Assembly: GCF_007097395.1 (NCBI RefSeq)
Contig: NZ_VKDC01000043.1
Span: forward strand, 1-64,000
From: Fulvivirga sp. M361
GTDB taxonomy: Bacteria; Bacteroidota; Bacteroidia; Cytophagales; Cyclobacteriaceae
Reading direction: 5' to 3'
DNA: 64,000 bases
Shown: positions 19,836-52,251 of the stretch, in pieces
Position numbering within the stretch: the stretch's first letter is position 1
Layout of the letters: every line of letters begins with the position of its first letter
Program-made: the position numbers and the translations under genes
The notes under the pieces: generated by a model
Databases searched by the model: none
What the model saw: the letters and a program-made list of their open reading frames with translations, nothing else
What the model was told of the DNA's origin: nothing

Positions 19836-22800
19836 TCAAGTGGTCTGAATCTGCGATTTCACCCTATAATCCACAGGTGAGATATCATATTTCTTTTTGA
19901 AGGCTCTGCTAAAATAACTTGGATTACTAAATCCGCAAGAATAGGCAACACTCGATATAGAAATTTCCGGATGTGTTGAGATCAGTTGAGCGGCCTTTGT
20001 TAACCTTATATTTGTTATAAATTCATTGGGTGTTTGACCGGTGACACCTTTGATCTTTCTAAATAAGTTGGTCCTACCCAGGGACATGTCCCTGGCGAAG
20101 GACTCTACGCCATAAGAGGTATTTTCTATGTTGGTTAGGATCAAGTCGTGCGCTTTATCGAGAAATTCTTTATCAATTTTACGTTTTGCGAGATTCCGGG
20201 CAAACCGTATTGGACTTTCACCATATTTGTTTTGAAGCGCTTGCCGATTGTCCAGTATGTTATTGATCCTTGCAATCAAAACTTTGGAATTGAACGGTTT
20301 AGAGATGTAGTCATCTGCGCCTGTTTCTAACCCTTCTATTCGATGCTCATCTGAACCTCTGGCGGTCAACAGTATGATCGGAATATGTGATGTCAGGATG
20401 TCTGCCTTTAATTTAGCGCACATTTCTGTCCCATTCATCTTAGGCATCAGCACATCGCTCAGTATCAGGCCCGGAGGGTTTTCCTTGACATGCTCAATGG
20501 CTTCTAATCCGTTTGAGGCTTGTTTTACCTTGAAAAGAGGGCCTATCAATTCAATTAAAAAGTTCATTACTTCGACATTATCCTCCACAATTAATATGGT
20601 TTCCGAACGCTCCGGGAATTCGTTCAGTTGTGCACTTTTCATCGGTTTGTCAATGGTGATCCTCTTGACGGACGAACTGTGAAGTTCCTCTGGTTTAAAA
20701 TGTTCTTTACCTTTCCGGAGAGATACAGTAAAGGTAGTAAGGCTGTCCTGTGATGAACTGTTTACGGTTATCTTACCGCCGTGTGCGTCAACGACCCCTT
20801 TGGCAAGTGCAAGGCCGATACCCGTACCACGGGACTTTGCATTGGTAATGTTATCCAATTGATAGAAGCGATCAAAAACCCGCTCCATTTCCTCTTTTGG
20901 TATGGTAGAACCTGAGTTAATGACTGAAATATTTAATTGACTGTTGATTTCGGTTATGTTAGTAATAATTTGTCCACCCTCAGGTGTGAATTTGAATGCG
21001 TTGGCGAGCAGGTTGTAAAAAACCTTTTCCAATTGGTTGTGATCAAAGAAAAGCAGGTATTGTTCAAAATCCGAATTCAGGGAATAGTCTATTTGACTGT
21101 GTGATGCCAGTTCTTCAAAACTTGTATGCACCTCTTTTATAAAGGTGATGAAATCATGCTCTTCCACCTTCAGGTCCAGATTCCCCTGCTCCAGCTTCCG
21201 AAAGTTCAGGAGCTCTGAAATAAGACTTTTTAGCCGAAGTGTATTCTTTTGAATATTCAAAAGTTTACGATAGGTGAAATGCCCCAAATTACCGTTCTCG
21301 AGTAAAAGGTCAATTTGTCCGGCCATAATGGTTAGTGGAGTGCGGAACTCATGAGAGATATTGGTAAAGAAGCTGATTTTCTTCTGATTCAACTCTTCAT
21401 CTCTTTGATGTAATTCCTTCTCATTAGCAAGACTGTAAGTCAATTTGCTTTGTTTGATGTACTGGTAGTTAATAAGGATAACTAATATAACGGCAATAAA
21501 GATATACACTGCAATGGCCCAGGACGCAAGGTAGAAAGGTGGTCTTATAACGATCTCCAGCTCACGTATATGCTCAGGAGAGTTGCTGGCCCTTAGTCGG
21601 AAAGTATAAGTACCGTCATCCAAATTGGTATAGGTAATTTTACTTTGATCTATTGCCGATATCCATTTATCATCAAACCCTTTCATCTGGTATTCCAAGG
21701 CTTGCCGATTCGATTTGGTAAAGAGCATGTCGGAGATAGAAATGGTTATTGAAGAGTGTTCTCGACTTAATTCAATGTTATCCGTCTCCATGATAGAGTT
21801 TGATAAAATACGTGAATGGCTCCATGGTGATACTGCCTCATTATTGATAGATAGTCCGGTGATGGTAGGATTGGATTTTGGCTTAAAATCGATATAGTCC
21901 AGCTCATGGAAAGAAACCATGCCCTCAATCCCACTCACGAAAAAGGTGCCATCCCTTGCAAGAAAAATGCCGTTAGGGCTAAGCTCACGGAGCATTAGCC
22001 CGTTGTTATAAGAAATACTGCTGAAGCGTTCCTTTTCCTGATCATAGAAACTGATGCCTTTGTCTGTTTGTACTACTAATCCGCTGAAACGTGATTCTAC
22101 GATTCCATAAACGATGTTTCCCGGTAGTCCGTCATCAGAAGTGTAAACTTTAAATTTATCCACCTTGGGCATATATAACGCCAGCCCATTGGAAGAACCA
22201 ATCCAAATTTTTTGTTGCCTGTCCTTAAAAATAGCGTAGATCCGGTCACCAGGAACTTCTGGTGTACTGCCAAAATCACCCTGATAGTTTTTCAGAATAT
22301 CTTTATCCTTCTCATATTTAAATAGTCCCGTTCTTTCCGTCCCAATCCAGAATTCATTGTTGTCCACATTACGTATAGACATCACCGGTGAGGATATCAA
22401 CTCCTCGTGCTCAGGCTTAAGAAAGGGGCTAAACTTCTTTCTTTTGGTATTAAACAGTAAACACCCACTGCCACTGGCAACTAATAAATCCTCATCCATT
22501 CCAGTGATATAGTATATTTCCGTAGCAAAATTTATCTTTTCGCTGGTAATCCTAAAATTCTTGAATTCGCCCGAACTGACGTTAAACGAGTTGAGGCCCT
22601 CTCTGTGAGTACCTACCCATAACAACGAGTCACCATGCCAAAACAGGCTTTTGACATTATTGCCGGAAATGCTGTTTTGATCCGTTTTTGATACATGATA
22701 GGTAAATTTACCTTGTTTTCTATCATAGAAGTTCAAACCGCCACCATCAGTACAGATATATAAGTTCTCGTCTGCGTCCTCAATGACCTGTCCGACCACT

Positions 22801-24158: not shown

Positions 24159-25433
24159 ATGAAAAAAGTACTGGGGCTAATTATACTATTAATTTGGTTT
24201 GGATGTGAGCAAACAAAAAAGACAACAGTTGATGAACCTGTATCCGTTTTAAGAGATTCAACAAGAACGGATAAGATCGTAGCTTTTGAGAAGAAGTCGA
24301 ATGAACTTCTAAGTTTGGCGCTACAGGAAAATAAGATTCCAAGAACTGAGGAGAATGGTGAAATCGTATGGGCCACCAGGTACAATGAGTCCGGTGAACC
24401 CATATTCGATTGGACCATAGGGTTCTTTCCCGGTACCTGCTGGTATTTATATGAGACTACCGGAGATGAAAAATGGAAAGACGCTGCCATCAAATTTCAG
24501 CAAGGCATTCAGCCCTTCAAAAGTAATACGGAATCACACGATTTAGGCTTTGTGTTTTATTGTTCATTTGGTAATGCATTTCGGTTGACAGGCAATGATG
24601 CCTATAAACAAGTACTTGTAGAAGCAGGCAATAGCTTGCTGCAGCGATTTAATCCTAAGGTGGGTTGTATTCAGAGCTGGAATGTTGATAGAGGTTGGCA
24701 GTCTAAGAGAGATTGGAAGTTTCCGGTTATCATAGATAACATGATGAACCTTGAATTACTCTTTGAGTTGACAGCGTTGACCGGGGATTCCACCTATCGG
24801 GAAATAGCCATATCGCATGCAGATGTTACACTGGAAAATCATTTTCGAACGGATAATAGCTCTTACCACGTTATTGATTACAATCCTGAAAATGGTGAAG
24901 TAAGAAAAAGGAATACTGCTCAAGGATATGCTCACGAAAGTGCCTGGGCCAGGGGGCAAGCCTGGGGACTATACGGTTACACGGTTTGTTATCGTTATAC
25001 AAAAGATAAAAAGTATCTGGATCAGGCTCATCAGATAGCCAACTTTATTATTAATAACCCAAATCTCCCGGATGATGGTATTCCATACTGGGATTATGAT
25101 GCTCCTAACATTCCCGATGAGCCAAGAGATGTATCAGCTGCTGCAATCACTGCCTCTGCCCTCATTGAATTAAATGGATATACAGATAACCAATTTAAAG
25201 GTTTTGCACATAAGCTGATAGATAACCTATCTTCTGATAAGTATTTAGTTCCCCTCGGAAGCAAAACAAAGTTTGTCCTCAATCACTCAGTTGGAAGCAT
25301 TCCGCATGGGGCCGAAATAGATAAACCATTGATTTATGCTGACTACTATTATTTGGAAGCGTTGCTACGAAGTTCCTCAGAAGGGGGTAGCGATTTACTG
25401 GCAATCAGTCCAAATCTTTCTATGATAAAATGA
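24159..25433 (+). CDS. GH88 unsaturated glucuronyl hydrolase lipoprotein
   Basis: A 424-aa enzyme of the GH88 (alpha/alpha)6-barrel family. It starts with a lipoprotein signal (lipobox WFGC). The two conserved catalytic Asp residues appear as Asp128 in SHDLGF and Asp193 in IIDNMMNLE. Further family motifs are DWTIGFFPG, YAHESAWARGQAWGLYG and DSAAA-like DVSAAAITASA. GH88 enzymes remove the 4,5-unsaturated uronic acid from oligosaccharides made by polysaccharide lyases. Its presence as the first gene of the PUL operon predicts that a lyase acts upstream in the pathway and that the substrate holds uronic acid. The lipobox suggests a membrane-anchored periplasmic location. Confidence 0.93.
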   Translation: MKKVLGLIILLIWFGCEQTKKTTVDEPVSVLRDSTRTDKIVAFEKKSNELLSLALQENKIPRTEENGEIVWATRYNESGEPIFDWTIGFFPGTCWYLYETTGDEKWKDAAIKFQQGIQPFKSNTESHDLGFVFYCSFGNAFRLTGNDAYKQVLVEAGNSLLQRFNPKVGCIQSWNVDRGWQSKRDWKFPVIIDNMMNLELLFELTALTGDSTYREIAISHADVTLENHFRTDNSSYHVIDYNPENGEVRKRNTAQGYAHESAWARGQAWGLYGYTVCYRYTKDKKYLDQAHQIANFIINNPNLPDDGIPYWDYDAPNIPDEPRDVSAAAITASALIELNGYTDNQFKGFAHKLIDNLSSDKYLVPLGSKTKFVLNHSVGSIPHGAEIDKPLIYADYYYLEALLRSSSEGGSDLLAISPNLSMIK

Positions 25434-25457
25434 TCTAATAAATAACAAATACAAACT

Positions 25458-27011
25458 ATGATGAAAAATCTACTGTTTATAGCTCTTACTTCGTCAATCA
25501 TTTTACTCGGTTGCGTTGAAGATGCTTTTGAAGACGGAGGGATCTCAAACTCTCCACAGGCGCCATCAGACCTGCAATATTCCCCGGTAGTTCAAGCCAG
25601 GGAGTTTGGTGTGCTGATTTCAGCTCCACCTACTTACAATTCATTTGGAGCTATCCCCTCATTCGAGATTGTGGCGGTTCATGATGAGGATGGAAATCCG
25701 TTAAGTGATACCACCATCGATGATTTCTTTTCAATTCTAAATGGTACTCCTGACACGATAATGGTAGCGCCGGAAGATGGCTTTATTAATGAAGACGGGG
25801 ACACCATCAGAACTTTTCCTATAGTTAATGTAAGTGACATCGGACGTATACAAATAGAAGGAGAAAACACCTTGGTGGAAGGTAGTTATTTCTTTGATAT
25901 TAAGATGACGACAGTATTTGATGACCAGTCATTCTCTGCCACATTTGAGCGGGTGTTCGAATTGTATCTGGGACCTCAACTGGCCTCAGGTTTGGTGTAC
26001 ATACCCGGGGGGCAGAATCTGCTCACTTCAGGGGGTACAACAAGCACTACGGAGCCTATTGTCATTGGGGCGAACCCCGATTTTCGATTTGAACTGGGTG
26101 ATAATACTGACAAGTTTACCATTGATGCTACAACAGGCGTGATCACCCTGAATAGTGGTTATACACCCACGGAGGAGCCGGAAATTGTTTCTCCGACTGT
26201 TAATGTGGTAAGTAATATTTCAGAAGAAATAGTATCCTTTAATTCCATTACCATTTACATCTCCAATAGTCCTTTTGATGTACCCAAGTTGGTCGTGAGT
26301 GTGTTCTATCCCACGTTTGAATTTGAAAACACTGAATTTGGTTATCGTATCCATACAGTGGAAGAAGGTGATCCAGGGATCTTTTGGAATCGACTCGCAG
26401 CACCAGGGATTGCCGATGACGATAGACCGGCGGAAAATGCGAATCAGAAAAGGTTAGAAATCAATTTGGTTAAACCTTCCGGAGGAAATCAAGTGCCCCA
26501 CGAATCCTGGGCCATTATGAATGCACAGGATTTAAGCGCCTATGAATTTGGTTACGACATAGAAGCTGAATTTTTCTCTGAAAATCGCTTTGTTGAGTAC
26601 TTAAGCACAGATGGATCCTCTCCGTCATTTTTAGCGGTGTATGTGTCTACAGATTATCGGGGAGATTTTAATAATGCCACCTGGGTTGAGGTAACGGATC
26701 AATTGGAATCCAATATCATTTCAGACGGTGAGTTTATTGAGGGTAATGAGTTTGAAGGTTATCCATATCCCGGTGACCAAAATCTCCGTGATTTTACAGA
26801 TACACCTTGGGGGAAAGACCCATCAAAGAATGCCGATGACAAATGGGTCAGAAGCACCTTCGATATGGTAGATTACATTGGTATGTCGAATGTGACGGTC
26901 GCATTTAGGGTGTACACGACATTTGAAGGTGCCATCAGTTCCTCCTTCCCTTACGACAGATCTGGCAGGTACCTCCTGTCTGACTTTAACATCACTGCTT
27001 ACGAACAATGA
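25458..27011 (+). CDS. Surface glycan-binding lipoprotein in SusE/F position
   Basis: A 517-aa lipoprotein (lipobox ILLGC) 24 bp after the GH88 gene and directly before susC. It has an N-terminal Ig-like domain (about 30-170), a cadherin-like segment with FTIDATTGVITL (about 190-270) and a C-terminal beta-sandwich (about 280-517) with LAVYVSTDYRGDF and NATWVEVTD of the type found in DUF5017/choice-of-anchor domains. No catalytic motif was seen. In PULs such lipoproteins capture the polysaccharide at the cell surface and hand it to the SusCD complex. The function is inferred from position and architecture. Confidence 0.78.
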   Translation: MMKNLLFIALTSSIILLGCVEDAFEDGGISNSPQAPSDLQYSPVVQAREFGVLISAPPTYNSFGAIPSFEIVAVHDEDGNPLSDTTIDDFFSILNGTPDTIMVAPEDGFINEDGDTIRTFPIVNVSDIGRIQIEGENTLVEGSYFFDIKMTTVFDDQSFSATFERVFELYLGPQLASGLVYIPGGQNLLTSGGTTSTTEPIVIGANPDFRFELGDNTDKFTIDATTGVITLNSGYTPTEEPEIVSPTVNVVSNISEEIVSFNSITIYISNSPFDVPKLVVSVFYPTFEFENTEFGYRIHTVEEGDPGIFWNRLAAPGIADDDRPAENANQKRLEINLVKPSGGNQVPHESWAIMNAQDLSAYEFGYDIEAEFFSENRFVEYLSTDGSSPSFLAVYVSTDYRGDFNNATWVEVTDQLESNIISDGEFIEGNEFEGYPYPGDQNLRDFTDTPWGKDPSKNADDKWVRSTFDMVDYIGMSNVTVAFRVYTTFEGAISSSFPYDRSGRYLLSDFNITAYEQ

Positions 27012-27019
27012 TATCAGAC

Positions 27020-30000
27020 ATGAAAAAATCAATACTATTTACTTTATTCTTCTGCGTTCTTACCATTATTTCACTTGGTCAGAACAGGATAACAGGTGTT
27101 GTCTCCGATGGTGAATCTGGCGAAGCGCTACCTGGCGCAGCTATAATTATAAAAGGCACAACAACCGGAACCATTTCCGATACAGACGGTAACTTCACAC
27201 TCATTGATGTACCGAATGATGCTGTTTTGACGGTTAGTTTTGTGGGTTACACATCATTAGAAATACCAGTTGCCGGTCAGACCAGATTTGACATCAAATT
27301 GGAATTGGATATTCAAAGTCTGGAAGCCGTAGTTGTGGTAGGGTACGGTACCGAAAGAAAGCGTGATCTTACCGGGTCTGTCGGAAGTGTAAAACCTGAA
27401 GAACTGGCAGTTGCACCCACCTCTAATTTTGATCAGGCTTTAGCTGGTCGTATTGCAGGTGTTCAGGTTTCTTCACCGGATGGTACCCCTGGAGGAGCGG
27501 CTCAAATTGTCATTAGAGGTGGTAACTCCATAACGGGAGACAATTCACCCCTTTATGTAATAGATGGGGTTCCGCTGGTGGATTTTGATCCTGCATCTAT
27601 TAATACAAATGATATAAAGTCTTTTGATGTGCTTAAGGATGCATCTGCCACCGCCATATATGGTTCAAGGGGTGCAAATGGTGTGATTTTGATCACAACG
27701 AAAGGTGGAAGAACAGATGGTACTACAGAAGTGAGTTTTGGTGCGAATATGGGGGTACAGTACGCTCCTCGAAGGCTCAAGGTGATGAATCCATACCAAT
27801 ACGTTAGCTTTTTAGAGGAGCAAGCTCTGATATTAGATGACTATACGCCTGGTAGTGAAACCGGCAATTTTTATGGAGTTTGGGGAGATCCGGAGAACTA
27901 CAGGAATATCGAGGGCACCAGTTGGCAAGATGAAATTTTCGAACAGGGCAGATTTGAAGATTACAACCTTTCGGTTAGTGGCGGTGGTGATATAACGCAA
28001 TTTTACTATAGCGGACAATACCTGGATCAGGGGGGTACAGTGACAAACACAGGCTTCAACAAAGCCGTGAATAATCTAAGAGTTAAACACGAAGTGAATG
28101 ACTGGATGAAGTTGGATGCCAACCTCGTATACAGCCTGTCTAATCGGACAGGTTCAACCGTAGATGGAAATGGTTTTAGTGGTAATATTATTCGCGATGC
28201 ACTGGTTTTCCGACCGGTGGAACCATTAAATGATGACGGGTTAGATGGATTCGATCCCGATGAGGAATCAGGCAGGTTTCTTTTTAACCCCATAGACAAT
28301 CTAAACAATACAGATCGCATAGACCGTAGAGAGCTGTTTAGAGGAACGCTGACAGGACGTTTCAAGATCCTGCCCGGACTTACCTTTAACACGGTGGGAA
28401 GTTTTCAAACTGAGAATAGAAGAAGAACATTATTTTATGGTGAGAACACCTTTCAGGGCACCCGCGGAAATGACGGGATTAGTGGTAGCATCAGAACCGG
28501 ACGTGTGCAAGTGGCCTCTGGTTCCGGGGTAATAAACTATGCTCCGAAATTAGGCAGTAATCAACGGCTTAGGTTAATGGCGGGAACAGAAGCACAAACA
28601 AGAACTTTTGAAGATTCGCAATTAAGCGCCACTCAACTTCCAACAGATGTATTTGGTATAGACAATCTCAGTATAGGATTAATATCGCCTATTCCAACTA
28701 GTTTACTTTCAGAAAATACTTTGCTGTCTTATTTCGGTAGAGTTAACTACTCTCTGAATAATCGCTATCTGGTCACTGTAAACTTCAGAGCAGATGGATC
28801 TTCTAAATTCAGAGAAGAGAACCGATGGGGTTATTTTCCCTCGTTTTCCCTCGGTTGGATTGTATCAGATGAGCCATTTATGAGCTCGACCGGAGTTTTA
28901 TCAAATTTGAAAGTAAGAGGAGGGTGGGGAGTCACCGGTAATAACCGAATAGGTGATTTTGATGCATTCACTACGCTCGCTTCGAACACAGGTTCAGGAT
29001 ACGTTTGGGGCAGTGGAGAGAACTATGCAGTTGGTGCTATCATCAATAATTTAGGGGTACCTGATCTGCGATGGGAAACCACAGAACAATTAAATATTGG
29101 AGCTGAGTTTGGAATACTTGACGGACGAATTCAAGGAGAAGTGGACTATTATTTGAAGCGAACAAAAGACCTTTTGTTGAATGCCGATATGGCTTCCAGC
29201 ACAGGGTTTGAGCGAGTACAACAAAATGTTGGGGAGGTAGAAAACAGTGGAGTTGAGATCACACTAAGGTCTTTCAACCTGGATTCGAAAAACTTCAAAT
29301 GGACCACCAATTTTAATATCGCATTTAACAGAAATAAAGTCATTAATTTGAATCAGGGGCAGGACGCTATTTTCACTAACCCTGAACGTATAAACCTGGG
29401 TAACGAATTCTCCTACATTACCCGGGTCGGTCAGTCTGTAGGTCAGATATACGGGTTACAATTCGATGGTTTGTACCAGTTGGATGATTTTAACTGGAAC
29501 AATGACCTGGGCATATATGAACTTAAGGATGGTATTCCTGATAATGGCGGGACACCTGGTCCTGGTAGTGTTAAATACATTGATGTGAATGGCGATGGTA
29601 CCATTACAGAAGAAGATAGAGATATAATTGGTAATACAGTTCCTGACTTTATAGGAGGTATAACCAATAATTTTGAATATAAAGGTTTTGAACTGCAGGT
29701 GTTTTTTCAGTGGTCTTATGGTGCGGAAATTCTTAACCTGAACAGAGTGGAATTGGAATCTCCTTCAGGTTCCAGGCAAAATAGATTGGTGGCAGTGCTT
29801 GATCAATGGACACCTGCTAACACGGATACCGACATCCACTCATTGACCTATGCAAGGACGTTCGGCAGACCAATACTGGGTACAAGAATCAGTGATTTTT
29901 ATGTGGAAGATGCTTCTTTCCTACGGTTAAAGACTATTTCCCTGGGATATAGACTTCCGGAGAGGTACCTGACCAACATATTCGCAAAATCATTACGTGT

Positions 30001-30169
30001 TTTTATGTCCGCCCAGAACCTGGTGACCTGGACAAACTACTCGGGGTACGATCCGGAAGTCTCCGTAGCGCCAAGAAATGGTGTTTCCAGGGCCCTCGCT
30101 CCAAACCTGGACTGGTCGGCCTACCCACAAAGCGTAACCATTACAGGTGGAATTAATGTAACCTTTTAA
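27020..30169 (+). CDS. SusC-like TonB-dependent outer-membrane transporter
   Basis: A roughly 1050-aa SusC/RagA transporter. I prefer the ATG at 27020 (MKKSILFTLFF), which gives a clean signal peptide ending in SLGQ; an ATG at 27008 overlaps the preceding stop and is possible. After the signal comes a carboxypeptidase-regulatory-like domain (ITGVVSDGESGEALPGA), then the TonB-box-like VVVGYGTERKRDLTGSV, a plug domain with AIYGSRGANGVILITTKGG, and a 22-strand beta-barrel ending in an aromatic strand (TGGINVTF). It imports oligosaccharides across the outer membrane in a complex with the SusD protein encoded just downstream. Confidence 0.96.
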   Translation: MKKSILFTLFFCVLTIISLGQNRITGVVSDGESGEALPGAAIIIKGTTTGTISDTDGNFTLIDVPNDAVLTVSFVGYTSLEIPVAGQTRFDIKLELDIQSLEAVVVVGYGTERKRDLTGSVGSVKPEELAVAPTSNFDQALAGRIAGVQVSSPDGTPGGAAQIVIRGGNSITGDNSPLYVIDGVPLVDFDPASINTNDIKSFDVLKDASATAIYGSRGANGVILITTKGGRTDGTTEVSFGANMGVQYAPRRLKVMNPYQYVSFLEEQALILDDYTPGSETGNFYGVWGDPENYRNIEGTSWQDEIFEQGRFEDYNLSVSGGGDITQFYYSGQYLDQGGTVTNTGFNKAVNNLRVKHEVNDWMKLDANLVYSLSNRTGSTVDGNGFSGNIIRDALVFRPVEPLNDDGLDGFDPDEESGRFLFNPIDNLNNTDRIDRRELFRGTLTGRFKILPGLTFNTVGSFQTENRRRTLFYGENTFQGTRGNDGISGSIRTGRVQVASGSGVINYAPKLGSNQRLRLMAGTEAQTRTFEDSQLSATQLPTDVFGIDNLSIGLISPIPTSLLSENTLLSYFGRVNYSLNNRYLVTVNFRADGSSKFREENRWGYFPSFSLGWIVSDEPFMSSTGVLSNLKVRGGWGVTGNNRIGDFDAFTTLASNTGSGYVWGSGENYAVGAIINNLGVPDLRWETTEQLNIGAEFGILDGRIQGEVDYYLKRTKDLLLNADMASSTGFERVQQNVGEVENSGVEITLRSFNLDSKNFKWTTNFNIAFNRNKVINLNQGQDAIFTNPERINLGNEFSYITRVGQSVGQIYGLQFDGLYQLDDFNWNNDLGIYELKDGIPDNGGTPGPGSVKYIDVNGDGTITEEDRDIIGNTVPDFIGGITNNFEYKGFELQVFFQWSYGAEILNLNRVELESPSGSRQNRLVAVLDQWTPANTDTDIHSLTYARTFGRPILGTRISDFYVEDASFLRLKTISLGYRLPERYLTNIFAKSLRVFMSAQNLVTWTNYSGYDPEVSVAPRNGVSRALAPNLDWSAYPQSVTITGGINVTF

Positions 30170-30178
30170 TTGACCAAG

Positions 30179-31873
30179 ATGAACGAGTTAATAAAAATGA
30201 AATTCAATAAATTAAATGTAGCTATCATCCTTCTGTCAATAATGGTAATAGGATGTGACGACTACCTCGACGTAACACCGGAGTCTGTTTGGGAATCCGC
30301 AAGTTTTTACTCTACGCCCCAGGAAGCTGAGATTGCCCTGGCAGGTATTTATGGTGTGCTTGCCAGTGATGAAAGTTATGGAAGAGAGCAATTGATCTTA
30401 GGCGCCGGAACCGATGAATATTACTACAACAGGCGTTTCAATGAGAATTGGGCTGTGTCATTATTCAGGAATACACCGGCTGATCAATTCAGCTTCAACT
30501 ATTGGACAAACCAGTACCAGGCGATCAACCTGGCCAACCTCTTCATTGAAAGTATAGACCGATCTAGCTTTGAAACAGAAGAGGCTTTTAATGCATTGGT
30601 GGCTGAGGTACGTTTTTTAAGAGCGCTATGCTACTTTAACCTATCTAATTACTGGAATGAGGTGCCTTTGAGACTTTCTTCTTCAAAAGATCAAGAGGAT
30701 AATAACGTGCCGCCTGCACCTTTGGCTGATGTGTATGACGCCATTGTGGAAGACTTTACTTTCGCCTCGGAGAATTTGCCTCATCCCGTAGATGCAGGCT
30801 ATGTCCAGGGAAGGGCGCATAAGCTTGCCGCTCACGGTTTACTCGCCAGGGTTTACATGAAGATGTCCGGCTATCCGTTCAAACAGCCACATTACCAGGA
30901 AGCAATAACCCACTGCGAAGCGGTGATAAATGACGGGTTCCATAGTCTTATCACCACCAGTGATACTACGGGCTACAGAGAAGTATTCCTGGATGTCATA
31001 GGAGGGGTTTATAATATGACAGAGGTGATATTTGAGATATCTTTTCAAAACCTTCGTGACCAGGGCCTGACAGGAACTACCGTAGGCCGGCTGGGTGCCT
31101 TGAACGGCTTGAACTTCGGGTCTAACAATAATCTGGGAGATCCGAATGGATTCGCCCAAGCCGGGGTATATCCGATACTCTCCGGGTTGTATGATCAGAA
31201 CAATGATAAACGATACCTATGGAATATTGCAACATTCAAGAGAACAGGGGCCGGAGATATTATACGAGTTACGAATGAAATGGCCACCAGAGATTTTTGT
31301 CCGGCAAAGTACAAAAGGTGGGAGCCGTTAGATTATGCTGACATAGATATTGAAGGCACCAATGAGAACTTTGTCATCTTAGAAAACAGTGCCAGTGAAC
31401 TCAATAGAAATTTCACAAGCGTCAATTTCCCCGTATTACGATACTCGGATATATTGCTCATGTATGCAGAGGCTTCTAATGAGCTGAACAACGGACCCTC
31501 GGCCTTGGCTATTGAATACCTTAATGAGGTCAGGAATCGTGCCGGCCTGGTGAACATTGAAGTTGAAAAACCTACGGTAGCTGCTGATAAAGTGTTATTC
31601 TTTGATGAGTTAGTGGATGAACGCACGAGAGAACTTTGCTTTGAAGGTGTACGAAGGCATGACCTTATCAGATGGGAACTGTTAGATGAAAAACTTGCCG
31701 AGGTAAAGGCTTTTGTTGAAGGTCATCCTGATTTTGTTGCCAGCAATGCGGATCACCAGGCTGCCTTGAGAGGCCCCAACAACTTTGATGTTAATATTCA
31801 CCTGTCATTACCCTATCCTTTGGTAGAGGTAACCGTAAATCAATCGCTTGATCAAAAACCGGAATGGCAATAA
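30179..31873 (+). CDS. SusD/RagB-family glycan-binding lipoprotein
   Basis: A SusD-like surface lipoprotein of about 564 aa, encoded directly after susC. The signal has lipobox VIGC followed by DDYLDVTPES, the usual SusD N-terminus. FYSTPQEAEIALAGIYG, EVRFLRALCYFNLSNYWNEVPL and the C-terminal ELVDERTRELCFEGVRRHDLIRW are classic SusD/RagB motifs. It closes over the SusC barrel and binds the glycan on the cell surface. The ATG at 30179 is preferred over an upstream TTG at 30170; an ATG at 30197 is another option. Confidence 0.95.
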   Translation: MNELIKMKFNKLNVAIILLSIMVIGCDDYLDVTPESVWESASFYSTPQEAEIALAGIYGVLASDESYGREQLILGAGTDEYYYNRRFNENWAVSLFRNTPADQFSFNYWTNQYQAINLANLFIESIDRSSFETEEAFNALVAEVRFLRALCYFNLSNYWNEVPLRLSSSKDQEDNNVPPAPLADVYDAIVEDFTFASENLPHPVDAGYVQGRAHKLAAHGLLARVYMKMSGYPFKQPHYQEAITHCEAVINDGFHSLITTSDTTGYREVFLDVIGGVYNMTEVIFEISFQNLRDQGLTGTTVGRLGALNGLNFGSNNNLGDPNGFAQAGVYPILSGLYDQNNDKRYLWNIATFKRTGAGDIIRVTNEMATRDFCPAKYKRWEPLDYADIDIEGTNENFVILENSASELNRNFTSVNFPVLRYSDILLMYAEASNELNNGPSALAIEYLNEVRNRAGLVNIEVEKPTVAADKVLFFDELVDERTRELCFEGVRRHDLIRWELLDEKLAEVKAFVEGHPDFVASNADHQAALRGPNNFDVNIHLSLPYPLVEVTVNQSLDQKPEWQ

Positions 31874-40053: not shown

Positions 40054-41622
40054 ATGAATAGTATAAAACGATTTAAATCAGAATGGAAAGCGGTTTACGC
40101 TTTTTCAATCCTTTTTGTAGCTACCATTGGCTGCCAAAAAAGCGCTGAGAAAGAAGAAACCATAAAGGTCCGGCCTAACATCATCGTTATTTATTTAGAT
40201 GATTTAGGCTATGGTGACCTTAGCTCGTATGGAGCCACTGAACTGCAAACTCCTAATATCGACAAACTGGCCAATGAAGGCATGAAATTTACCAACGGCT
40301 ATGCTACTTCAGCCACGTGCACTCCCAGTCGGTACGCTTTGCTAACAGGCGAGTACCCCTGGAGGCGCAAAAGCGCAAAGATCCTTCCCGGTACGGCTCC
40401 GCTTATTATTGATACTGCGCAGCAAACACTACCTAAACTATTAAGAAGCGCAGGCTATCAAACAGGCATTGTTGGTAAGTGGCATCTTGGTTTAGGAAAT
40501 GGAAGTGCGAATTGGAATGAACTCATTTCTCCTGGCCCTAACGAGGTAGGATTTGATTACTCCTATATTATGGCGGCTACCCAGGACAGGGTGCCTACTG
40601 TTTACCTTGAAGATGGTTTGGTGGTGGGATTAGATCCAAATGATCCTATACAGGTTAATTACGCTCAAAATTTTGATGGAGAGCCTACAGGACTAGACAA
40701 CCCCGAATTGCTTAAAATGAAGTGGCACCATGGTCACAACAGCAGTATTGTTAATGGCATACCCAGGATTGGTTACATGAAAGGCGGTGAAGCTGCCAGG
40801 TGGGTAGATGAAGAAATGGCGGATCACTTTCTAACCAAGGCCCGAGAGTACATTAAAGGCCACAAAGACGACCCTTTCTTCTTGTATTTGCCCATGCAGC
40901 AACCCCATGTTCCCAGAACACCACATCCAAGGTTTGTAGGGAAGTCCGGCTTAGGCCCGCGTGGAGATGTCATAGTAGAAGCAGATTGGTGCATTGGCGA
41001 AATAATGAAGGCTTTGGAAGAAGAAGGTATACTGGAAAGCACGCTTATTATTTTTTCTAGTGATAACGGCCCCGTACTAAATGATGGCTACTATGATGAT
41101 GCAGTTGAAAAACTTGGTACCCACGATCCGAAGGGTGGATTAAGAGGAGGAAAATACAGTTTGTTTGAAGCAGGCACAAGGGTGCCGTTTATTAGTTACT
41201 GGAAGGGTAAGATCAACCCGGGTCAATCGGATGCCCTTATTTGCCAGATGGATTTACTGGCCTCAATAGGCCGTTTAGTAGGGAAAAAGGTAGAAAAGAG
41301 TGACAGTGAAGACATGCTCGACTTATTGCTTGGAAATTCTGACAAAGGGAGGGAGTCGCTCGTTATAGAAGCCAACACGCGTACCGCTTTCAAGAAGGGT
41401 GATTGGGTTATGATCCCACCATACAATGGTGAGGCTATCGCCAAGGACGTAAATATTGAATTAGGAAATTCAGAGAACTTCATGCTCTTCAATCTAAAAG
41501 ACGATCCGGGGCAATTGAATAATCTTGCAGATTCAAACCCTGCTAAACTGAAAGAGTTGAAAAAGGAGTTTTACGAAATTCGTGGCGACTATTCCGGCTT
41601 TGAAAAGCTGGAGTTGAAATAA
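40054..41622 (+). CDS. Family S1 sulfatase lipoprotein (PUL sulfatase 2)
   Basis: A 522-aa arylsulfatase-type enzyme with a lipoprotein signal (lipobox TIGC). Metal ligands are in IIVIYLDDLGYGD. The formylglycine motif is C-T-P-S-R (Cys89) in ATCTPSRYALLTG. KWHLG and IIFSSDNGPV are the other conserved active-site segments. It differs clearly from the first PUL sulfatase (classic C-T-P-S-R and LDD), so it probably removes sulfate from another position or sugar. It is the last gene of the main PUL operon and is followed by a terminator at 41897-41946. Confidence 0.93.
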   Translation: MNSIKRFKSEWKAVYAFSILFVATIGCQKSAEKEETIKVRPNIIVIYLDDLGYGDLSSYGATELQTPNIDKLANEGMKFTNGYATSATCTPSRYALLTGEYPWRRKSAKILPGTAPLIIDTAQQTLPKLLRSAGYQTGIVGKWHLGLGNGSANWNELISPGPNEVGFDYSYIMAATQDRVPTVYLEDGLVVGLDPNDPIQVNYAQNFDGEPTGLDNPELLKMKWHHGHNSSIVNGIPRIGYMKGGEAARWVDEEMADHFLTKAREYIKGHKDDPFFLYLPMQQPHVPRTPHPRFVGKSGLGPRGDVIVEADWCIGEIMKALEEEGILESTLIIFSSDNGPVLNDGYYDDAVEKLGTHDPKGGLRGGKYSLFEAGTRVPFISYWKGKINPGQSDALICQMDLLASIGRLVGKKVEKSDSEDMLDLLLGNSDKGRESLVIEANTRTAFKKGDWVMIPPYNGEAIAKDVNIELGNSENFMLFNLKDDPGQLNNLADSNPAKLKELKKEFYEIRGDYSGFEKLELK

Positions 41623-44883: not shown

Positions 44884-44987
44884 CTCAACCCCACGGACTA
44901 TAGGATTTGAGATATCTTTAGCCATTTAAGCGATTTATTGCATCAAGTGAGTTGACCTTGTTCATACACGTTTTTAAGTATTTTTTT

Positions 44988-46424
44988 ATGTTGAAGTATA
45001 CGGTTCAAACTACCTTCATATTGTTGATGTTAGTGGCCTGCCAGCAAACCGAACATCCGGCTGGCCGACCTAATGTCCTACTTATTATGGTTGATGATCT
45101 AAACGATTGGACGGCATACCTGGGAGGTCATCCGCAAGCAAAAACACCCAATATTGATGTACTGGCGAATCGAGGAATGGCATTTACGAATGCCCACTCC
45201 AATTCGCCACTTTGTGGTCCGTCAAGGTCTTCCATGCTCACCGGGTTACGACCATCCACTTCCGGGGTTTATTTTCATATCCAGGACAAGAGTTTGGTAA
45301 ACCAGGTAAGAAACGGAGACCTGAAGGCAAAGCTACTGCCTGATTACTTTGCAAAAAATGGCTACAAAACCATGGGGGTGGGCAAAGTCTTCCACTTAGG
45401 AGATCAGGCAAGGGTGTTTAACCAATATGGAGGGTATTGCGATTTTGATCCGAGACCGGAGGAGCATTTTGTATATGACCCGGTTTGGTTTGATAAACCG
45501 CCCGGCACTTCAACAGATTGGGGAGCTTATCCGGCCCATGATTCTTTAACATTTGACCAGCAAATAGCAGATTGGACCATGGCCCGTCTTGAAGAGCAAC
45601 ATGACAAACCGTTTTTTATGGTCACAGGTTTTATGCGTCCGCATGTACCCTGGTATGTTCCTCAAAAATGGTTGGATGCATTTAATAGTGACAGTATTCA
45701 GACCCCAGCGTATTTACCCGAAGATTGGAAGGATGTGCCCGAGATAGGCAAAAAGATCACCGAATGGCCCGCTATGCCAGATATGGACTGGATGTTAGAG
45801 GAAAGCAGGTGGGAGGATGCTGTAAAAGCCTATTTGGCCAGCATGTATTTTGTAGACTACCAAATCGGGAGGGTACTTAAAAAATTGGAATCCAGCCCAT
45901 ATGCTGAAAACACCATCGTCGTCCTTGTTTCCGACCATGGTTACCACCTGGGGGAGAAGGGACTGTTTCAGAAAGGCACTCTTTGGGAACGGTCATCTCA
46001 TATTCCGATGATATGGGCCGGTCGGGGCATTAAGAGCGCAAAAACCGATGAACCGGTTAGTCTTTTGGATGTGTATCCTACGCTGGCAAAGATCTGTGAA
46101 CTGATACCCCCTGACCATCTTGAAGGCAATAGCCTTTTGCCATTACTTCAGGGAGAAAAATCCGGTAGGGATTATAGCGTTGTGACCACCTATGGTCCCA
46201 ACAATCATTCGGTCTTTTATGAAAACTGGCACTACATTCGGTACAATGATGGATCAGAAGAGTTGTACGATCTTAAAGAAGATGAACACGAGTGGGTTAA
46301 TCTGCTAAGCGATAACAAGAAACATAGCTCGGTTGATCAATTAGTGCAATTACTTCCAAATGTAAACGAACCTAACCATGTGCACAGCCATAACTCGGCT
46401 GTTCCTTATTTCACGAATGAATAG
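44988..46424 (+). CDS. Iduronate-2-sulfatase-like S1 sulfatase lipoprotein (PUL sulfatase 3)
   Basis: A roughly 478-aa sulfatase. The start at 44988 (MLKYTVQTT) gives a lipoprotein signal with lipobox LVAC; an ATG at 44952 would add 12 residues. LLIMVDDLNDW carries the metal ligands, C-G-P-S-R (Cys76) in LCGPSRSSMLTG is the formylglycine motif, and GFMRPHVPWYVP, SDHGYHLGEKG and WERSSHIPMIW match the iduronate-2-sulfatase-like group (S1_7 in the SulfAtlas scheme, as I judge it). This group acts on 2-O-sulfated uronic acids among other substrates, which fits GH88 in the same locus. It lies in the second PUL block, 104 bp after the DUF4955-like gene. Confidence 0.9.
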   Translation: MLKYTVQTTFILLMLVACQQTEHPAGRPNVLLIMVDDLNDWTAYLGGHPQAKTPNIDVLANRGMAFTNAHSNSPLCGPSRSSMLTGLRPSTSGVYFHIQDKSLVNQVRNGDLKAKLLPDYFAKNGYKTMGVGKVFHLGDQARVFNQYGGYCDFDPRPEEHFVYDPVWFDKPPGTSTDWGAYPAHDSLTFDQQIADWTMARLEEQHDKPFFMVTGFMRPHVPWYVPQKWLDAFNSDSIQTPAYLPEDWKDVPEIGKKITEWPAMPDMDWMLEESRWEDAVKAYLASMYFVDYQIGRVLKKLESSPYAENTIVVLVSDHGYHLGEKGLFQKGTLWERSSHIPMIWAGRGIKSAKTDEPVSLLDVYPTLAKICELIPPDHLEGNSLLPLLQGEKSGRDYSVVTTYGPNNHSVFYENWHYIRYNDGSEELYDLKEDEHEWVNLLSDNKKHSSVDQLVQLLPNVNEPNHVHSHNSAVPYFTNE

Positions 46425-46434
46425 ATAATTTGGG

Positions 46435-47886: not shown

Positions 47887-47899
47887 GGATTGTTCCGTT

Positions 47900-48679
47900 T
47901 TATTTGTCGATACTCCAAACTTTAAAATTCTTATATCGGGCACTTCGCGTGTACATGTGTCGCAATCCGATTCTTCCGTTGTCACAATCAGGAAAATCAC
48001 TCACATCCCATTGACAGATAAGTCGGTGCCCGGCGTATTCCTTGTGCTGAATATGCATCTCAATCTGGCTTTCAAATTTGATGACTTTAATGTGATAGGT
48101 CTCATTGGGGTGGAACAGACCGGTTTTGAAGATATCACCACTTACATCGGTTCCATTCAGGCCCGTGCCGTTTGGATCATACCTTCTTAATCGTATGTAA
48201 TCATTATCTCCCGAAAATTCTTTAGCCCCAAAAGCTGCATAACTGATATGGTAGGTGTTCATAGTATTGAAATACGTTTTCATACGGGGAACCCGTCGTT
48301 GATCATTCCATAAGGAAATATCTTCCGGATGCTCTTTATCGCCTTTGCCCGTAGCAAGAAAATACAAGATGTTAACACATCGCGTGGTGGTATCCGTTCG
48401 TGTATAATCGTATTCAATGAGCAAATTCCCTTCAAAAACCTTTTTCGTCCATAAGACGGTGTGGCAGGTGTCATTCCCATGTTCCGGACCTGCTATAAGT
48501 TCCATGCCTTCAGGTGTGTTAATCACCTGAGACCGCTCTCCGTCCAGCATCCATTGGTCCTTCCAGTTATGGGTCCCTGTATCTTCGAAGAGTAGTTCCG
48601 ACCTGGTGAAGTTGTGATTTCCTTGCGACTGGCAGGTAAAATACATGAAAGCTGTAAAGAGTAATAAGAATAATTTCAT
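47900..48679 (-). CDS. DUF1961 (YesU-like) lipoprotein
   Basis: A 259-aa lipoprotein (lipobox FTCQ). The chain matches the DUF1961 family: LLFEDTGTHNWKDQWMLDGE, HTVLWTKKVFEGNLLIEYDY, LRRYDPNGTG and GRIGLRHMYTRSARYKNFKVW. The fold is a concanavalin-like beta-sandwich. Bacillus subtilis YesU belongs to this family and sits in a rhamnogalacturonan locus; its reaction is not established. It lies 13 bp upstream of the esterase gene, and its start overlaps the stop of the preceding hydrolase gene by 4 bp, indicating a tight operon. It may be a glycosidase, lyase or binding protein. Confidence 0.83.
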   Translation of the reverse strand: MKLFLLLFTAFMYFTCQSQGNHNFTRSELLFEDTGTHNWKDQWMLDGERSQVINTPEGMELIAGPEHGNDTCHTVLWTKKVFEGNLLIEYDYTRTDTTTRCVNILYFLATGKGDKEHPEDISLWNDQRRVPRMKTYFNTMNTYHISYAAFGAKEFSGDNDYIRLRRYDPNGTGLNGTDVSGDIFKTGLFHPNETYHIKVIKFESQIEMHIQHKEYAGHRLICQWDVSDFPDCDNGRIGLRHMYTRSARYKNFKVWSIDK

Positions 48680-49723: not shown

Positions 49724-49800
49724 AAAAAGTCTGAATGATAGTGAAAGAGTTTTTAAACGTGCATAAGCATTTTAGATGTACTAACTATCAGAAAAATTAT

Positions 49801-52251
49801 ATGAGAAATCTTACTTTTATTTTAATATCAGTATGTCTTTGTAGTCAAATTGCCTTTGGCCAATTGCCGGTTTTACCAGACTCGCTTATTACCAGATGGA
49901 ATATGGCAGGAGTAAACGGCGGCATTCCCTTTGTGCCGGATTCCTTTACAAGTGCTAATGCTGTCCATGTTACCGCTTTTACCAGCGCAGGTATACAGGA
50001 AGCGATAGACTCTGCCAAATCAGAAGGCAAAAACTGGGTTTATTTACCCAATGGCACCTATGACCTGACAGCAGCTATAAAAATGACAACAGGGGTTTCC
50101 CTTGTAGGAGAAAGTCGCTCCGGAACAGAACTTTTGATAAAATTTAATTCCGGAAACGCTATCGCTATGTTTAATGACAATAACTGCGGTGTTTATAGAA
50201 TGACACTTAGAGGAATGTTTCCGGTAGGAGATGGGACCTACCATACAACACCTATCAATAAATGGGGATGTGATACATGTAACGAACTTCCCGATGTAAC
50301 AAATCGGAGTATTTCGATTAGCCAGTCTTATAATTGTTGGGTCGATGATGTCAGTATCTACAATAGTGGCCGGCACCCTTTATGGATTTCAGGTAATGCG
50401 TATCATAATACCATCAGAAATGTAAGGGTCAAAGGAGCCTTTAATAAAGGAGGAGGGGCCATGGGATACTTTATGATTGGAGGACGGGATAACTTGGTAA
50501 CGGAATGTAGCGTCACAGAGATCAGGCATATCACTATGCAAGGGACAGGATCTACGTTTAACGTGTTGAATAACAACGATTTTGACCAGGAGATAAGTTT
50601 TCATGTAGAAGACTCGGGATACAATCTGGTAGAGGGTAACCGAGTAACTCTGCCGGCTGATATGCCGGTCGGTTATTACGCTATAATGGGCACATGGTCC
50701 GTCAAGCATGACATGTCTTTGAATGACAACTATGTTTACAATAATTACTTCAAAGAAAATAACCATGGTGGAGATACCCTATTCCTGGGTCAATATGGGG
50801 CAAATGCCGATGTTTTTGCAGGACCGATTGACGGTAAGAAAGAAGCTCAAGCTGCCGGAAGAACATATGATCACACGCAAAATTTTGAGGCAGGCTACGC
50901 AGCGCCACCGTCGGGTCGAGTCTATATGGGAACGAGCCATCTGTCTTCTTTATCTGTTCAAGATGCTTATATAAGAAGAGGGACTTACGAAAGCAATAAT
51001 TACAACACTTCGACCTTGGTGATCAAAAGAGCCAACGATAACTCTTATGACCGTGAAACCCTGCTATTATTTAATGTCAGCGATATCAGCATAATTCCCA
51101 AAAAAGTGGTTTTAAAGATGTATTTAAACTCATTTGGTCAACAAAACGCTTCAACAAGTGAGATTCAGGTTTTTAAAGCCGGTATTTCCGATTGGGATGA
51201 AACCACAGTCACAGGTGCTGATATTGATACCACAGGCAATGTCATTTCCTCAACAACCGTATCGTCAGCATTGGGGCTTTATGAATGGGACGTGACCAGT
51301 GCGGTTCAGGATGTATTAAATAATGGAGATACGCTGGTTTCTCTCTTACTAAAATGTGCCACTAATGATGCCAATTACTTATCATTCGACAGCAAGGAAA
51401 GTGATTTTGCCCCAAGGCTGGACATCCGGCAAGAAATAAATCCTTTGGTATCTGATCATGATACATTTGTCAGGCGCGGCAGCTATTCGGGAAATAATTA
51501 TAACTCATCCTTACTTACCATCAAGAATGTGACAAACCCCTCTTTTGATCGTGACGTTGTGGTTTCTTTTGATGTGTCTGCAATCGTTGGCGCCCCTGAA
51601 TCCATAACGCTTAAAATGCACCTTAACACCTTCACCATTCAGGGCTCGGGGGGGAGTATGTCTGAGGTTAATGTGTTTAACACGAACTCACATGATTGGG
51701 ATGAAACTAACGTCACAGGAAATGATATTGATTCGCTTGGGACTCTGGTATCATCAACTGTGGTGAATTCAACAACCGGTTTTTACCAGTGGGACGTCAC
51801 TAGCGCCGTGCTTCAAGCCATTTATAATGGTACAAAAGTATCTCTCCTTTTAAGAACTAAAACTGCGGATGGTAATTATATGAACTTTACCAGTAGAGAG
51901 AGCGATTATGAGTTGGCGCCCAGGCTGGTGATTGATCAGGTTACCCCTCCACCAAGTGGGGCCCGTGTAGCTGGGGCCTGGGAGTTACACGAAGTTTTTG
52001 ATTCATCTGAAAATCCTTTTAATATTTATCCAAATCCGACCCAAGATTACCTGAATATTCTTGGCATTCCACAAGGGTCAGAACTCAGTATATATAATAT
52101 AAGTGGCTTAAATCTCATCAAAAAAACAGTCAATCGATCGAATAACTATCAGTTTGATGTAAGCTTACTCAAAAGGGGTCTTTACATCCTGACAATATGG
52201 GAATCAGGGACCAATCAAAGTCGATCTTATAAATTTCTAAAGTCTGAATAG
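49801..52251 (+). CDS. Secreted beta-helix protein with two DNRLRE/CBM96-like modules and T9SS domain
   Basis: An 816-aa secreted protein. The ATG at 49801 (MRNLTFIL) gives a signal peptide ending in AFGQL; an ATG at 49735 would add 22 residues. The beta-helix domain (about 25-350) is homologous to that encoded at 33501: NMAGVNGGIPF, LPNGTYDL, GVSLVGESRSGT, VSIYNSGRHPLW, VRVKGAFNKGGGAMGYF, EIRHITMQG. Two tandem modules follow (about 388-550 and 552-720) with DAYIRRGTYESNNYN, SDWDETTVTG and YEWDVTSAV motifs, the DNRLRE/CBM96 fold whose members bind alginate-like glycans. A type A T9SS domain starts at IYPNP. It is likely a surface lyase-like enzyme of the same pathway. Confidence 0.82.
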   Translation: MRNLTFILISVCLCSQIAFGQLPVLPDSLITRWNMAGVNGGIPFVPDSFTSANAVHVTAFTSAGIQEAIDSAKSEGKNWVYLPNGTYDLTAAIKMTTGVSLVGESRSGTELLIKFNSGNAIAMFNDNNCGVYRMTLRGMFPVGDGTYHTTPINKWGCDTCNELPDVTNRSISISQSYNCWVDDVSIYNSGRHPLWISGNAYHNTIRNVRVKGAFNKGGGAMGYFMIGGRDNLVTECSVTEIRHITMQGTGSTFNVLNNNDFDQEISFHVEDSGYNLVEGNRVTLPADMPVGYYAIMGTWSVKHDMSLNDNYVYNNYFKENNHGGDTLFLGQYGANADVFAGPIDGKKEAQAAGRTYDHTQNFEAGYAAPPSGRVYMGTSHLSSLSVQDAYIRRGTYESNNYNTSTLVIKRANDNSYDRETLLLFNVSDISIIPKKVVLKMYLNSFGQQNASTSEIQVFKAGISDWDETTVTGADIDTTGNVISSTTVSSALGLYEWDVTSAVQDVLNNGDTLVSLLLKCATNDANYLSFDSKESDFAPRLDIRQEINPLVSDHDTFVRRGSYSGNNYNSSLLTIKNVTNPSFDRDVVVSFDVSAIVGAPESITLKMHLNTFTIQGSGGSMSEVNVFNTNSHDWDETNVTGNDIDSLGTLVSSTVVNSTTGFYQWDVTSAVLQAIYNGTKVSLLLRTKTADGNYMNFTSRESDYELAPRLVIDQVTPPPSGARVAGAWELHEVFDSSENPFNIYPNPTQDYLNILGIPQGSELSIYNISGLNLIKKTVNRSNNYQFDVSLLKRGLYILTIWESGTNQSRSYKFLKSE

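What the first reader, a model, noticed from the sequence alone, without database searches (positions are those of the whole stretch)
19836..52251. PUL for a sulfated, acetylated, uronate-containing polysaccharide with no recognisable classical lyase
Seen: HTCS, GH88, SusCD, three different S1 sulfatases, a GH43-like enzyme, two esterases and a YesU-like protein in one locus. Known: GH88 acts only on unsaturated uronates produced by polysaccharide lyases. Yet no product resembles a classical lyase family I know. Inference: one or more of the four beta-helix proteins (33501, 36658, 42088, 49801) is the missing lyase, so this locus may degrade its glycan through uncharacterised lyase families.
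Basis: partly seen in the sequence, partly recalled or inferred. Interest (0 to 1): 0.75.

Follow-up and report, generated by a model that had tools for sequence, protein, structure and literature searches.

The report
Chondroitin-type sugar locus with PL29-like lyases
This bacterial gene cluster probably digests a chondroitin-like sulfated sugar; its 'missing' cutting enzymes are recognisable relatives of a lyase family described in 2018, and only one companion protein family in it remains unexplained.

Summary
The gene inventory is right: HTCS, GH88, SusCD, three S1 sulfatases, GH43, two esterases, a DUF1961 (YesU-like) protein and four beta-helix proteins lie at 19836-52251. The claim that no lyase is recognisable is wrong. 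Two of the four beta-helix proteins (36658, 42088) match NCBIfam NF058554, the BT3328 (PL29) endo-lyase family (E 7.6e-87, 7.2e-80; beta-helix part only, below the equivalog cut-off). Nine putative active-site residues are unchanged in 11 of 11 aligned members, one of them a full equivalog. GH88 lies within 15 kb of the PL29-like gene in 8 of 11 loci examined. A same-genus genome (G013) holds a minimal version: HTCS, GH88, binding protein, SusCD, one sulfatase and the PL29-like gene, with no PL8 and no full-length copy of the other beta-helix family in that genome. Two sulfatases are nearest to chondroitin 4-O- and GalNAc-6-O-sulfatases of known structure. So this is most likely a chondroitin/dermatan-type PUL using PL29-like lyases instead of PL8; the substrate is inferred. 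The other two beta-helix proteins (33501, 49735/49801) form a second, uncharacterised family (46 loci found), in 8 of the 46 beside lyase or GH88 genes of this kind; it is accessory, and its activity is open.

The parts
19836..23801 (-). Hybrid two-component system sensor/regulator (HTCS)
   Evidence: Pfam Reg_prop, Y_Y_Y, HisKA, HATPase_c, Response_reg, HTH_18; 90% identical in G013
24159..25433 (+). GH88 unsaturated glucuronyl hydrolase, lipoprotein-like N-terminus (by eye)
   Evidence: PF07470 E 1.4e-10, 41.2 bits against a cut-off of 26.6; PDB 3wiw 334 bits, 1vd5 179 bits; 88% identical in G013
25458..27011 (+). Putative surface glycan-binding lipoprotein, no Pfam match
   Evidence: same place in G013 (76%) and, by its N-terminus, in G021. 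Binding role inferred from position
27008..30169 (+). SusC-like TonB-dependent transporter
   Evidence: Pfam Plug, CarbopepD_reg_2
30170..31873 (+). SusD-like protein
   Evidence: PF07980, PF14322
31848..33485 (+). S1 sulfatase A, S1_27-like 4-O-endosulfatase candidate; the sulfatase kept in the smaller loci
   Evidence: PDB 8di0 337 bits, 6s21 'Endo-4-O-sulfatase' 311 bits, 6j66 'CS/DS 4-O-endosulfatase' 221 bits; homologues in G013 88%, L019 75%, L021 66%, G237 50%
33501..36602 (+). Family B beta-helix protein with 4 Big_7 domains and T9SS tail
   Evidence: model of the domain pLDDT 92.3; no close solved relative
36658..38232 (+). PL29-like (BT3328 family) beta-helix lyase candidate a, DUF4955
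   Evidence: NF058554 E 7.6e-87, 292 bits; DUF4955; residues conserved; its orthologue is the only PL29-, PL8- or family-B-type gene found in the G013 locus
38234..40033 (+). GH43 with F5/8C domain
   Evidence: PF04616, PF00754; 53% identical homologue in the Labilibaculum locus L027 with two Chondroitinas_B and one PL8 protein
40054..41622 (+). S1 sulfatase B, S1_15-like GalNAc/Gal-6-O-sulfatase candidate
   Evidence: PDB 7ozc 702 bits, 7oze 566 bits, 6s20 'N-acetylgalactosamine-6-O-sulfatase' 548 bits
42088..44883 (+). PL29-like lyase candidate b with T9SS tail
   Evidence: NF058554 E 7.2e-80, 269 bits; DUF4955, Por_Secre_tail
44952..46424 (+). S1 sulfatase C, position specificity unclear (uronate 2-O possible)
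   Evidence: PDB 6hhm 170 bits; choline sulfatases 118-131 bits, iduronate-2-sulfatases 115-116 bits
46435..48000 (-). SASA-type carbohydrate esterase (true start probably near 47886)
   Evidence: PF03629; translation
47900..48679 (-). DUF1961 (YesU-like) protein
   Evidence: PF09224; 43% identical homologue beside a PL8 and a sulfatase-A homologue in L043
48676..49617 (-). BD-FAE / PaeX-like esterase
   Evidence: PF20434, NF041902 249 bits, below its cut-off of 550
49735..52251 (+). Family B beta-helix protein with two CBM96/DNRLRE domains and T9SS tail; start probably 49801
   Evidence: 38% identical to the 33501 domain; PF12708 33.2 bits against a cut-off of 27

Best explanation
The locus is a polysaccharide utilisation locus for a chondroitin/dermatan-sulfate-like glycosaminoglycan, built on the plan of the B. 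thetaiotaomicron CS/DS/HA locus but with PL29-like lyases (36658, 42088) in place of PL8. Proposed working: T9SS-tailed PL29b (42088) cuts the chain by beta-elimination outside the cell; SusCD and the binding lipoprotein take up the pieces; PL29a (36658) shortens them; sulfatase A removes 4-O-sulfate, which otherwise blocks GH88; GH88 removes the unsaturated uronate; sulfatase B removes 6-O-sulfate from the freed sugar; sulfatase C, GH43, the esterases and the two family B proteins handle substitutions or extra linkages. Shown: gene content, family assignments, conserved residues, repeated linkage of GH88 with PL29-like genes (and often sulfatase A). Inferred: activities, localisation, exact substrate.
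For: In NCBIfam, NF058554 is the one strong match of 36658 and of the beta-helix part of 42088; apart from the T9SS tail of 42088 (42.6 bits) the next models score 29 and 26 bits. H262, H263, H318, H342, H368, D378, H405, W284, N413 (numbering of the first row of A4) are identical in 11 of 11 aligned members including L065, a 1247-bit equivalog. G013 carries HTCS-GH88-SGBP-SusC-SusD-sulfatase A-PL29a and, by BLAST over the 40 kb read, nothing else of the locus; that genome shows no PL8 and no full-length family B. G237: HTCS, GH88, PL29-like, sulfatase A side by side. GH88 within 15 kb of the PL29-like gene in 8 of 11 loci, against 10 GH88 matches in the whole 8.13 Mb own genome. Sulfatases A and B are nearest to enzymes named as CS/DS 4-O- and GalNAc-6-O-sulfatases. 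PMC6994673 (passages seen): BT3348 GH88 was inactive on the 4-O-sulfated and active on the 6-O-sulfated disaccharide, which fits sulfatase A being the sulfatase kept in the smallest loci.
Against: Scores are far below the NF058554 equivalog cut-off (292 and 269 against 1100 bits) and the first ~300 model positions are missing; if the PL29 catalytic centre lay there, the window proteins would not be lyases. No PL29 structure or catalytic residue was found to test against. O-acetyl esterases are not expected for plain chondroitin sulfate. The second PL29-like locus of the same genome (C105) and the G307 locus showed no sulfatase-A homologue, and only 5 of 11 loci did, so the PL29-like group need not be tied to sulfated GAGs. 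Three of 11 loci had no GH88 within 15 kb, among them the two with the highest PL29 scores (G284: about 28 kb away; G405 and G053: none near). The GH88 is nearest to 3wiw (recalled as a heparin-type enzyme), not shown to be CS-type. The own genome holds PL8, PF14592 and PF07940 matches elsewhere. The PL29a structure prediction failed (pLDDT 43).
Confidence: 0.66

Rival explanations
1. The PL29-like proteins are the lyases, but the substrate is another sulfated, O-acetylated uronate polysaccharide (algal or bacterial), not chondroitin/dermatan sulfate.
For: Two esterases and GH43 in the locus; PL29-like genes with GH88 but without a sulfatase-A homologue in C105, G307 and L032; sulfatase C closest to 6hhm, not to a CS enzyme; CBM96 on 49735.
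Against: Sulfatases A and B are nearest to CS/DS 4-O- and GalNAc-6-O-sulfatases among solved structures; the G013 and G237 loci pair PL29-like with sulfatase A and GH88.
Confidence: 0.3
2. Family B (33501, 49735) is the main lyase, a new PL family, and the PL29-like proteins are secondary.
For: Two copies in the window and in Marinoscillum L019; near PL8 or Chondroitinas_B (PL6-type) proteins in L025, L026, L027, L043, L047; confident beta-helix model and near-invariant R, H, K, D, N residues.
Against: G013 has the minimal locus with PL29a and no full-length family B; G237 has its full-length family B gene on another contig than its PL29-like locus; in 38 of the 46 family B loci no such lyase or GH88 neighbour was found with the limited tests made.
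Confidence: 0.12
3. The lyase that feeds GH88 is encoded elsewhere in the genome and all four beta-helix proteins do something else.
For: PL8 at C72:16618, three PF14592 matches at C98 and C59, six PF07940 matches in the own genome; G013, G021, G237 and G307 also have PF07940 matches.
Against: A PL29-like gene lies within 15 kb of GH88 in 8 of 11 loci; G013, G021, G237, G307 showed no PL8.
Confidence: 0.08

Closest known systems
B. thetaiotaomicron CS/DS/HA PUL (BT3324-BT3350; PMC6994673 and PMC9067506, passages seen)
   Same: HTCS, SusCD, further surface proteins, PL29, S1_15 and S1_27 sulfatases, GH88
   Different: No PL8 in the window locus; two short PL29-like proteins without the N-terminal ~300 positions; third sulfatase, GH43, two esterases, DUF1961 and family B added
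PL29 / NF058554 BT3328 family endo-lyase
   Same: Strong homology over the beta-helix part, conserved histidines and aspartate
   Different: 33% and 31% identity to the domain of the equivalog L065; model positions 1-305 not matched; below the equivalog cut-off
Marinoscillum furvescens DSM 4134 locus (L019 / G021)
   Same: HTCS, GH88, binding protein, SusCD, sulfatase A, family B, PL29a, family B in the same order
   Different: No homologue of sulfatases B and C, GH43, PL29b or the esterase block in the stretch read
Roseihalotalea indica GAG-PUL (PMC13027841, part 1 of 5 of the text read)
   Same: Marine Bacteroidetes locus upregulated on chondroitin sulfate
   Different: Uses PL8, PL35, PL38 and a CE19 esterase

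Membership tests
PL29 (BT3328 family) for 36658 and 42088 | Significant homology to the family model over the beta-helix part | tested here: met
   E 7.6e-87 and 7.2e-80, model positions 323-837 and 306-837 of 840
PL29 (BT3328 family) for 36658 and 42088 | Score above the NCBIfam equivalog cut-off (1100 bits) | tested here: not met
   292 and 269 bits; N-terminal third absent. They are homologues, not equivalogs
PL29 (BT3328 family) for 36658 and 42088 | Conserved polar and aromatic residues shared with a true equivalog | tested here: met
   Nine named positions identical in 11 of 11 rows incl. L065; that they are catalytic is inferred
PL29 (BT3328 family) for 36658 and 42088 | Endolytic beta-elimination on CS, DS, HA | not testable with these tools
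   Needs an assay; activity of BT3328 itself from PMC9067506 (passages)
PL29 (BT3328 family) for 36658 and 42088 | CAZy/dbCAN PL29 profile | not testable with these tools
   dbCAN not on hand
GH88 for 24159 | Family homology and both Asp stretches | tested here: met
   PF07470 above cut-off; aligned to 3wiw and 1vd5; that these Asp are catalytic is recalled
CS/DS PUL of B. thetaiotaomicron type | PL8 lyase in the locus | tested here: not met
   No PL8 match among the 18 window proteins scanned; the one PL8 match of the genome is on another contig
CS/DS PUL of B. thetaiotaomicron type | S1_27-like and S1_15-like sulfatases with GH88 | tested here: met
   by nearest solved structure only; SulfAtlas subfamily not tested; that 6s21 and 6s20 are BT3349 and BT3333 is inferred from molecule names and PMC6994673
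PL29 for family B (33501, 49735) | Homology to PL29 beyond the shared beta-helix fold | tested here: inconclusive
   Profile-profile match prob 97.8, but with single sequences a GH28 protein scores as well (95.2) as PL29a (93.6), and the true PL29 scores less (61.9)
PL6 and other solved beta-helix families for family B | Close sequence or fold match | tested here: not met
   PDB profile search best 1.1e-7, over profile positions 71-189 only; Foldseek best E-value row TM 0.40; single PL6-type sequence prob 51

The most novel reading that the evidence does not exclude
Family B is a new beta-helix enzyme family, a polysaccharide lyase or uronate C5-epimerase for chondroitin/dermatan-type chains, in the window exported by T9SS, that works outside the cell before PL29-like or PL8 lyases; its members beside GAG-type lyases in Bacteroidota, a Verrucomicrobia bin and Colwellia relatives share this role.
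Probability: 0.3. Interest if true: 0.6.

Novelty: new variant of a known kind. Interest (0 to 1): 0.42.

Why it matters
It extends PL29, which the papers seen here describe from gut Bacteroides, to short relatives that are the only lyase-type gene found in small GH88/sulfatase loci of other Bacteroidota. A three-enzyme set (PL29-like, 4-O-sulfatase, GH88) can therefore be tested directly as a chondroitin-type pathway without PL8. It also isolates one beta-helix family (46 loci found) as a concrete candidate for a new carbohydrate-active family.

Tried and rejected
Rejected: that all four beta-helix proteins are unknown. Rejected: that GH88 is spurious because the Pfam score is weak (38.7 bits, 41.2); phmmer to a solved GH88 gives 334 bits. 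Considered and not upheld: family B as a PL29 subfamily; the profile match is not specific by the GH28 control. Led nowhere: structure of PL29a (pLDDT 43, five sequences only); Foldseek against viral models for family B (generic beta-helix proteins with low TM-scores); paper searches for Marinoscillum with chondroitin, marine, PUL and sulfatase (0 papers) and for DUF4955 (0 papers). The second structural aligner was not available.

Limits: PL29-like matches weaker than E 1e-40 were not examined for neighbours, and one search scored at most two candidates a genome in 395 genomes drawn from a larger group. Neighbours were found by BLAST to a small query set at E 1e-8, so other lyase classes can be missed; Pfam was run on only some neighbours. 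The 48-row family B alignment holds 2 window rows and 46 of the 51 stretches listed; five were left out (L053, near-identical to L052; L062, L063 and two L047 pieces, short or broken).

Full report
Observation. The GH88 is weak in Pfam but strong against a solved GH88 enzyme (3wiw, 334 bits), with the HD.GF and IID..NLE stretches kept. No PL8 or other Pfam lyase family is among the 18 proteins scanned.

The missing lyase. NCBIfam model NF058554 ('BT3328 family hyaluronic acid endo-lyase'; BT3328 is the founding PL29 enzyme, PMC9067506, passages) matches 36658 (E 7.6e-87, 292 bits) and 42088 (E 7.2e-80, 269 bits) over model positions 323-837 and 306-837 of 840. Apart from the T9SS tail of 42088 (42.6 bits), the next NCBIfam model for each is a rhamnogalacturonidase at 29 and 26 bits. 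In Pfam both carry DUF4955 and a general pectate-lyase-like match. Both scores are well under the equivalog cut-off of 1100 bits, so they are PL29 homologues, not equivalogs. In an alignment of 11 members, which includes L065 from G284, a 1247-bit equivalog, nine positions (W284, H262, H263, H318, H342, H368, D378, H405, N413 in the first row's numbering) are identical in 11 of 11. The window domains are 33% and 31% identical to the L065 domain.

Second family. 33501 and 49735 are 38% identical to each other over their N-terminal domains. They match no NCBIfam family well; in Pfam only the general beta-helix family PF12708 passes its cut-off for 49735 (33.2 against 27 bits). One genome-contig scan found 46 loci, 16 of them at E of 3e-38 or better. 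In 48 aligned sequences T200, L228, R238 and L272 are in 48 of 48, R202, H239, H264 and D267 in 47, K212, N271 and H314 in 46 (add 20 for residue numbers in 33501). The model is confident (mean pLDDT 92.3) and Foldseek finds beta-helix proteins, but the best row has TM 0.40 (pectin methylesterase), with a Vibrio polysaccharide lyase, C5 epimerases and a PL6 enzyme close behind: no family assignment. A profile comparison with PL29 looked good (prob 97.8), but with single sequences a GH28 protein (95.2) scores as well as PL29a (93.6), and the true PL29 lower (61.9), so it shows shared fold only.

Which family is the lyase? Comparative anatomy separates them. G013, of the same genus, has HTCS (90%), GH88 (88%), binding lipoprotein (76%), SusC (91%), SusD (88%), sulfatase A (88%) and PL29a (78%), and by BLAST over 40 kb nothing else of the locus. 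That genome shows no PL8, no match to the 49735 domain and only weak partial beta-helix matches to the family B profile (best E 2.6e-6). G237 has HTCS (29%), GH88 (54%), PL29-like (34%) and sulfatase A (50%) side by side, with no SusC or SusD match in the 20 kb read; its full-length family B gene lies on another contig. L019 (Marinoscillum furvescens) and L021 (Echinicola pacifica) have GH88, SusCD, sulfatase A, PL29-like and family B (for the GH88 of the first); L032 (Algibacter mikhailovii) has HTCS, GH88, PL29-like and family B.

Counts. Loci with an NF058554 match at E of 1e-40 or better are nine: window, C105, G013, G021, G053, G237, G284, G307, G405. Two more (L021, L032) came through family B. 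GH88 lies within 15 kb of the PL29-like gene in 8 of these 11: window, C105, G013, G021, G237, G307, L021, L032. It does not in G053 and G405; in G284 it lies about 28 kb away, and a PL8 about 24 kb away, on the same contig. A sulfatase-A homologue was found in 5 of the 11: window, G013, G021, L021, G237. Ten GH88 matches in 8.13 Mb would put about 0.04 in 30 kb by chance.

Family B neighbourhoods. Of the 46 loci, eight carry a GAG-lyase-type, GH88 or PL29-like neighbour by the tests made: L019, L021, L025 (PL8), L026 (PL8 homologue by BLAST), L027 (two Chondroitinas_B, one PL8, and a GH43 53% identical to the window's), L032, L043 (PL8, sulfatase A 41%, DUF1961 43%), L047 (PL8, sulfatase A 39%). 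The neighbours given to Pfam from L022, L023, L024, L031, L034, L035, L036, L037, L045, L048, L052, L054, L056 and L060 were not of that kind or had no match; one of L031 is a GH28. The remaining loci showed none by BLAST. So family B is broader than GAGs and is dispensable for the core locus.

Substrate. Among solved structures sulfatase A is nearest to 8di0, then to 6s21 ('Endo-4-O-sulfatase') and 6j66 ('CS/DS 4-O-endosulfatase'); sulfatase B to 7ozc, 7oze and 6s20 ('N-acetylgalactosamine-6-O-sulfatase'); sulfatase C to 6hhm and then choline and iduronate-2-sulfatases. The B. thetaiotaomicron CS/DS/HA locus has BT3328 PL29, two PL8, S1_15, S1_27 and GH88 (passages of PMC9067506, and PMC6994673). 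There the GH88 was inactive on the 4-O-sulfated disaccharide but active on the 6-O-sulfated one, which would explain why a 4-O-sulfatase type is the one sulfatase kept in the smallest loci. Against a plain CS substrate stand the esterases, the GH43, and the C105, G307 and L032 loci without a sulfatase-A homologue.

Other lyases in the genome. One PL8 match at C72:16618, three PF14592 matches at C98 and C59, six PF07940 matches. None lies in the window contig. They leave a distant helper possible. Lyase families without these Pfam domains were not searched genome-wide.

Novelty. The lyase family is known; PL29 appears in a current list of GAG lyase families (PMC13027841, part 1 of 5 read), and BT3328 homologues in other Bacteroides are discussed in PMC12877422 (passages). 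The PL8-free locus type and family B were not met in the listings or in the passages read; these searches cover only open-licence papers and none was aimed at family B by name, since it has none. The founding PL29 paper is not held and is cited from the review's reference list.

Noticed in passing
G000:C105:527372-545351 (L006, L007, L003, L004): A second PUL in the same genome: HTCS, SusCD, GH88, GH2, PL29-like with Big_7 and a sub-threshold T9SS tail, PaeX-like esterase, and a more divergent PL29-like protein; no sulfatase-A homologue found.
   Followed up: partly
L043:93-11038 and L047:6459-18129: Colwellia-type clusters with PL8, sulfatase-A homologues and family B twice (the second L047 copy is split over two ORFs) and, in L043, a DUF1961 protein 43% identical to the window's; a gammaproteobacterial counterpart of part of the locus.
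   Followed up: partly
window 47900-48679 (-): DUF1961 (YesU-like) protein recurs in a PL8 cluster (L043); its role there is unexplained.
   Followed up: no
window 46435-48000 and 47900-48679 (-): The two ORFs overlap only because the GTG start of the longest esterase ORF is too far upstream; a signal-peptide-like stretch begins near 47886.
   Followed up: no
G405:C45:53998-58504: Two adjacent PL29 genes (786 and 773 bits for their beta-helix parts) beside SusCD; no GH88 match on that contig.
   Followed up: no
L048, L056, L060: More distant family B members sit near FAD_oxidored proteins with golvesin-type C-terminal domains, a quite different setting.
   Followed up: no
window 55280-60004 (-): 1574-aa M12B reprolysin-like protein with DUF285, fn3 and PKD domains and a T9SS tail.
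   Followed up: no
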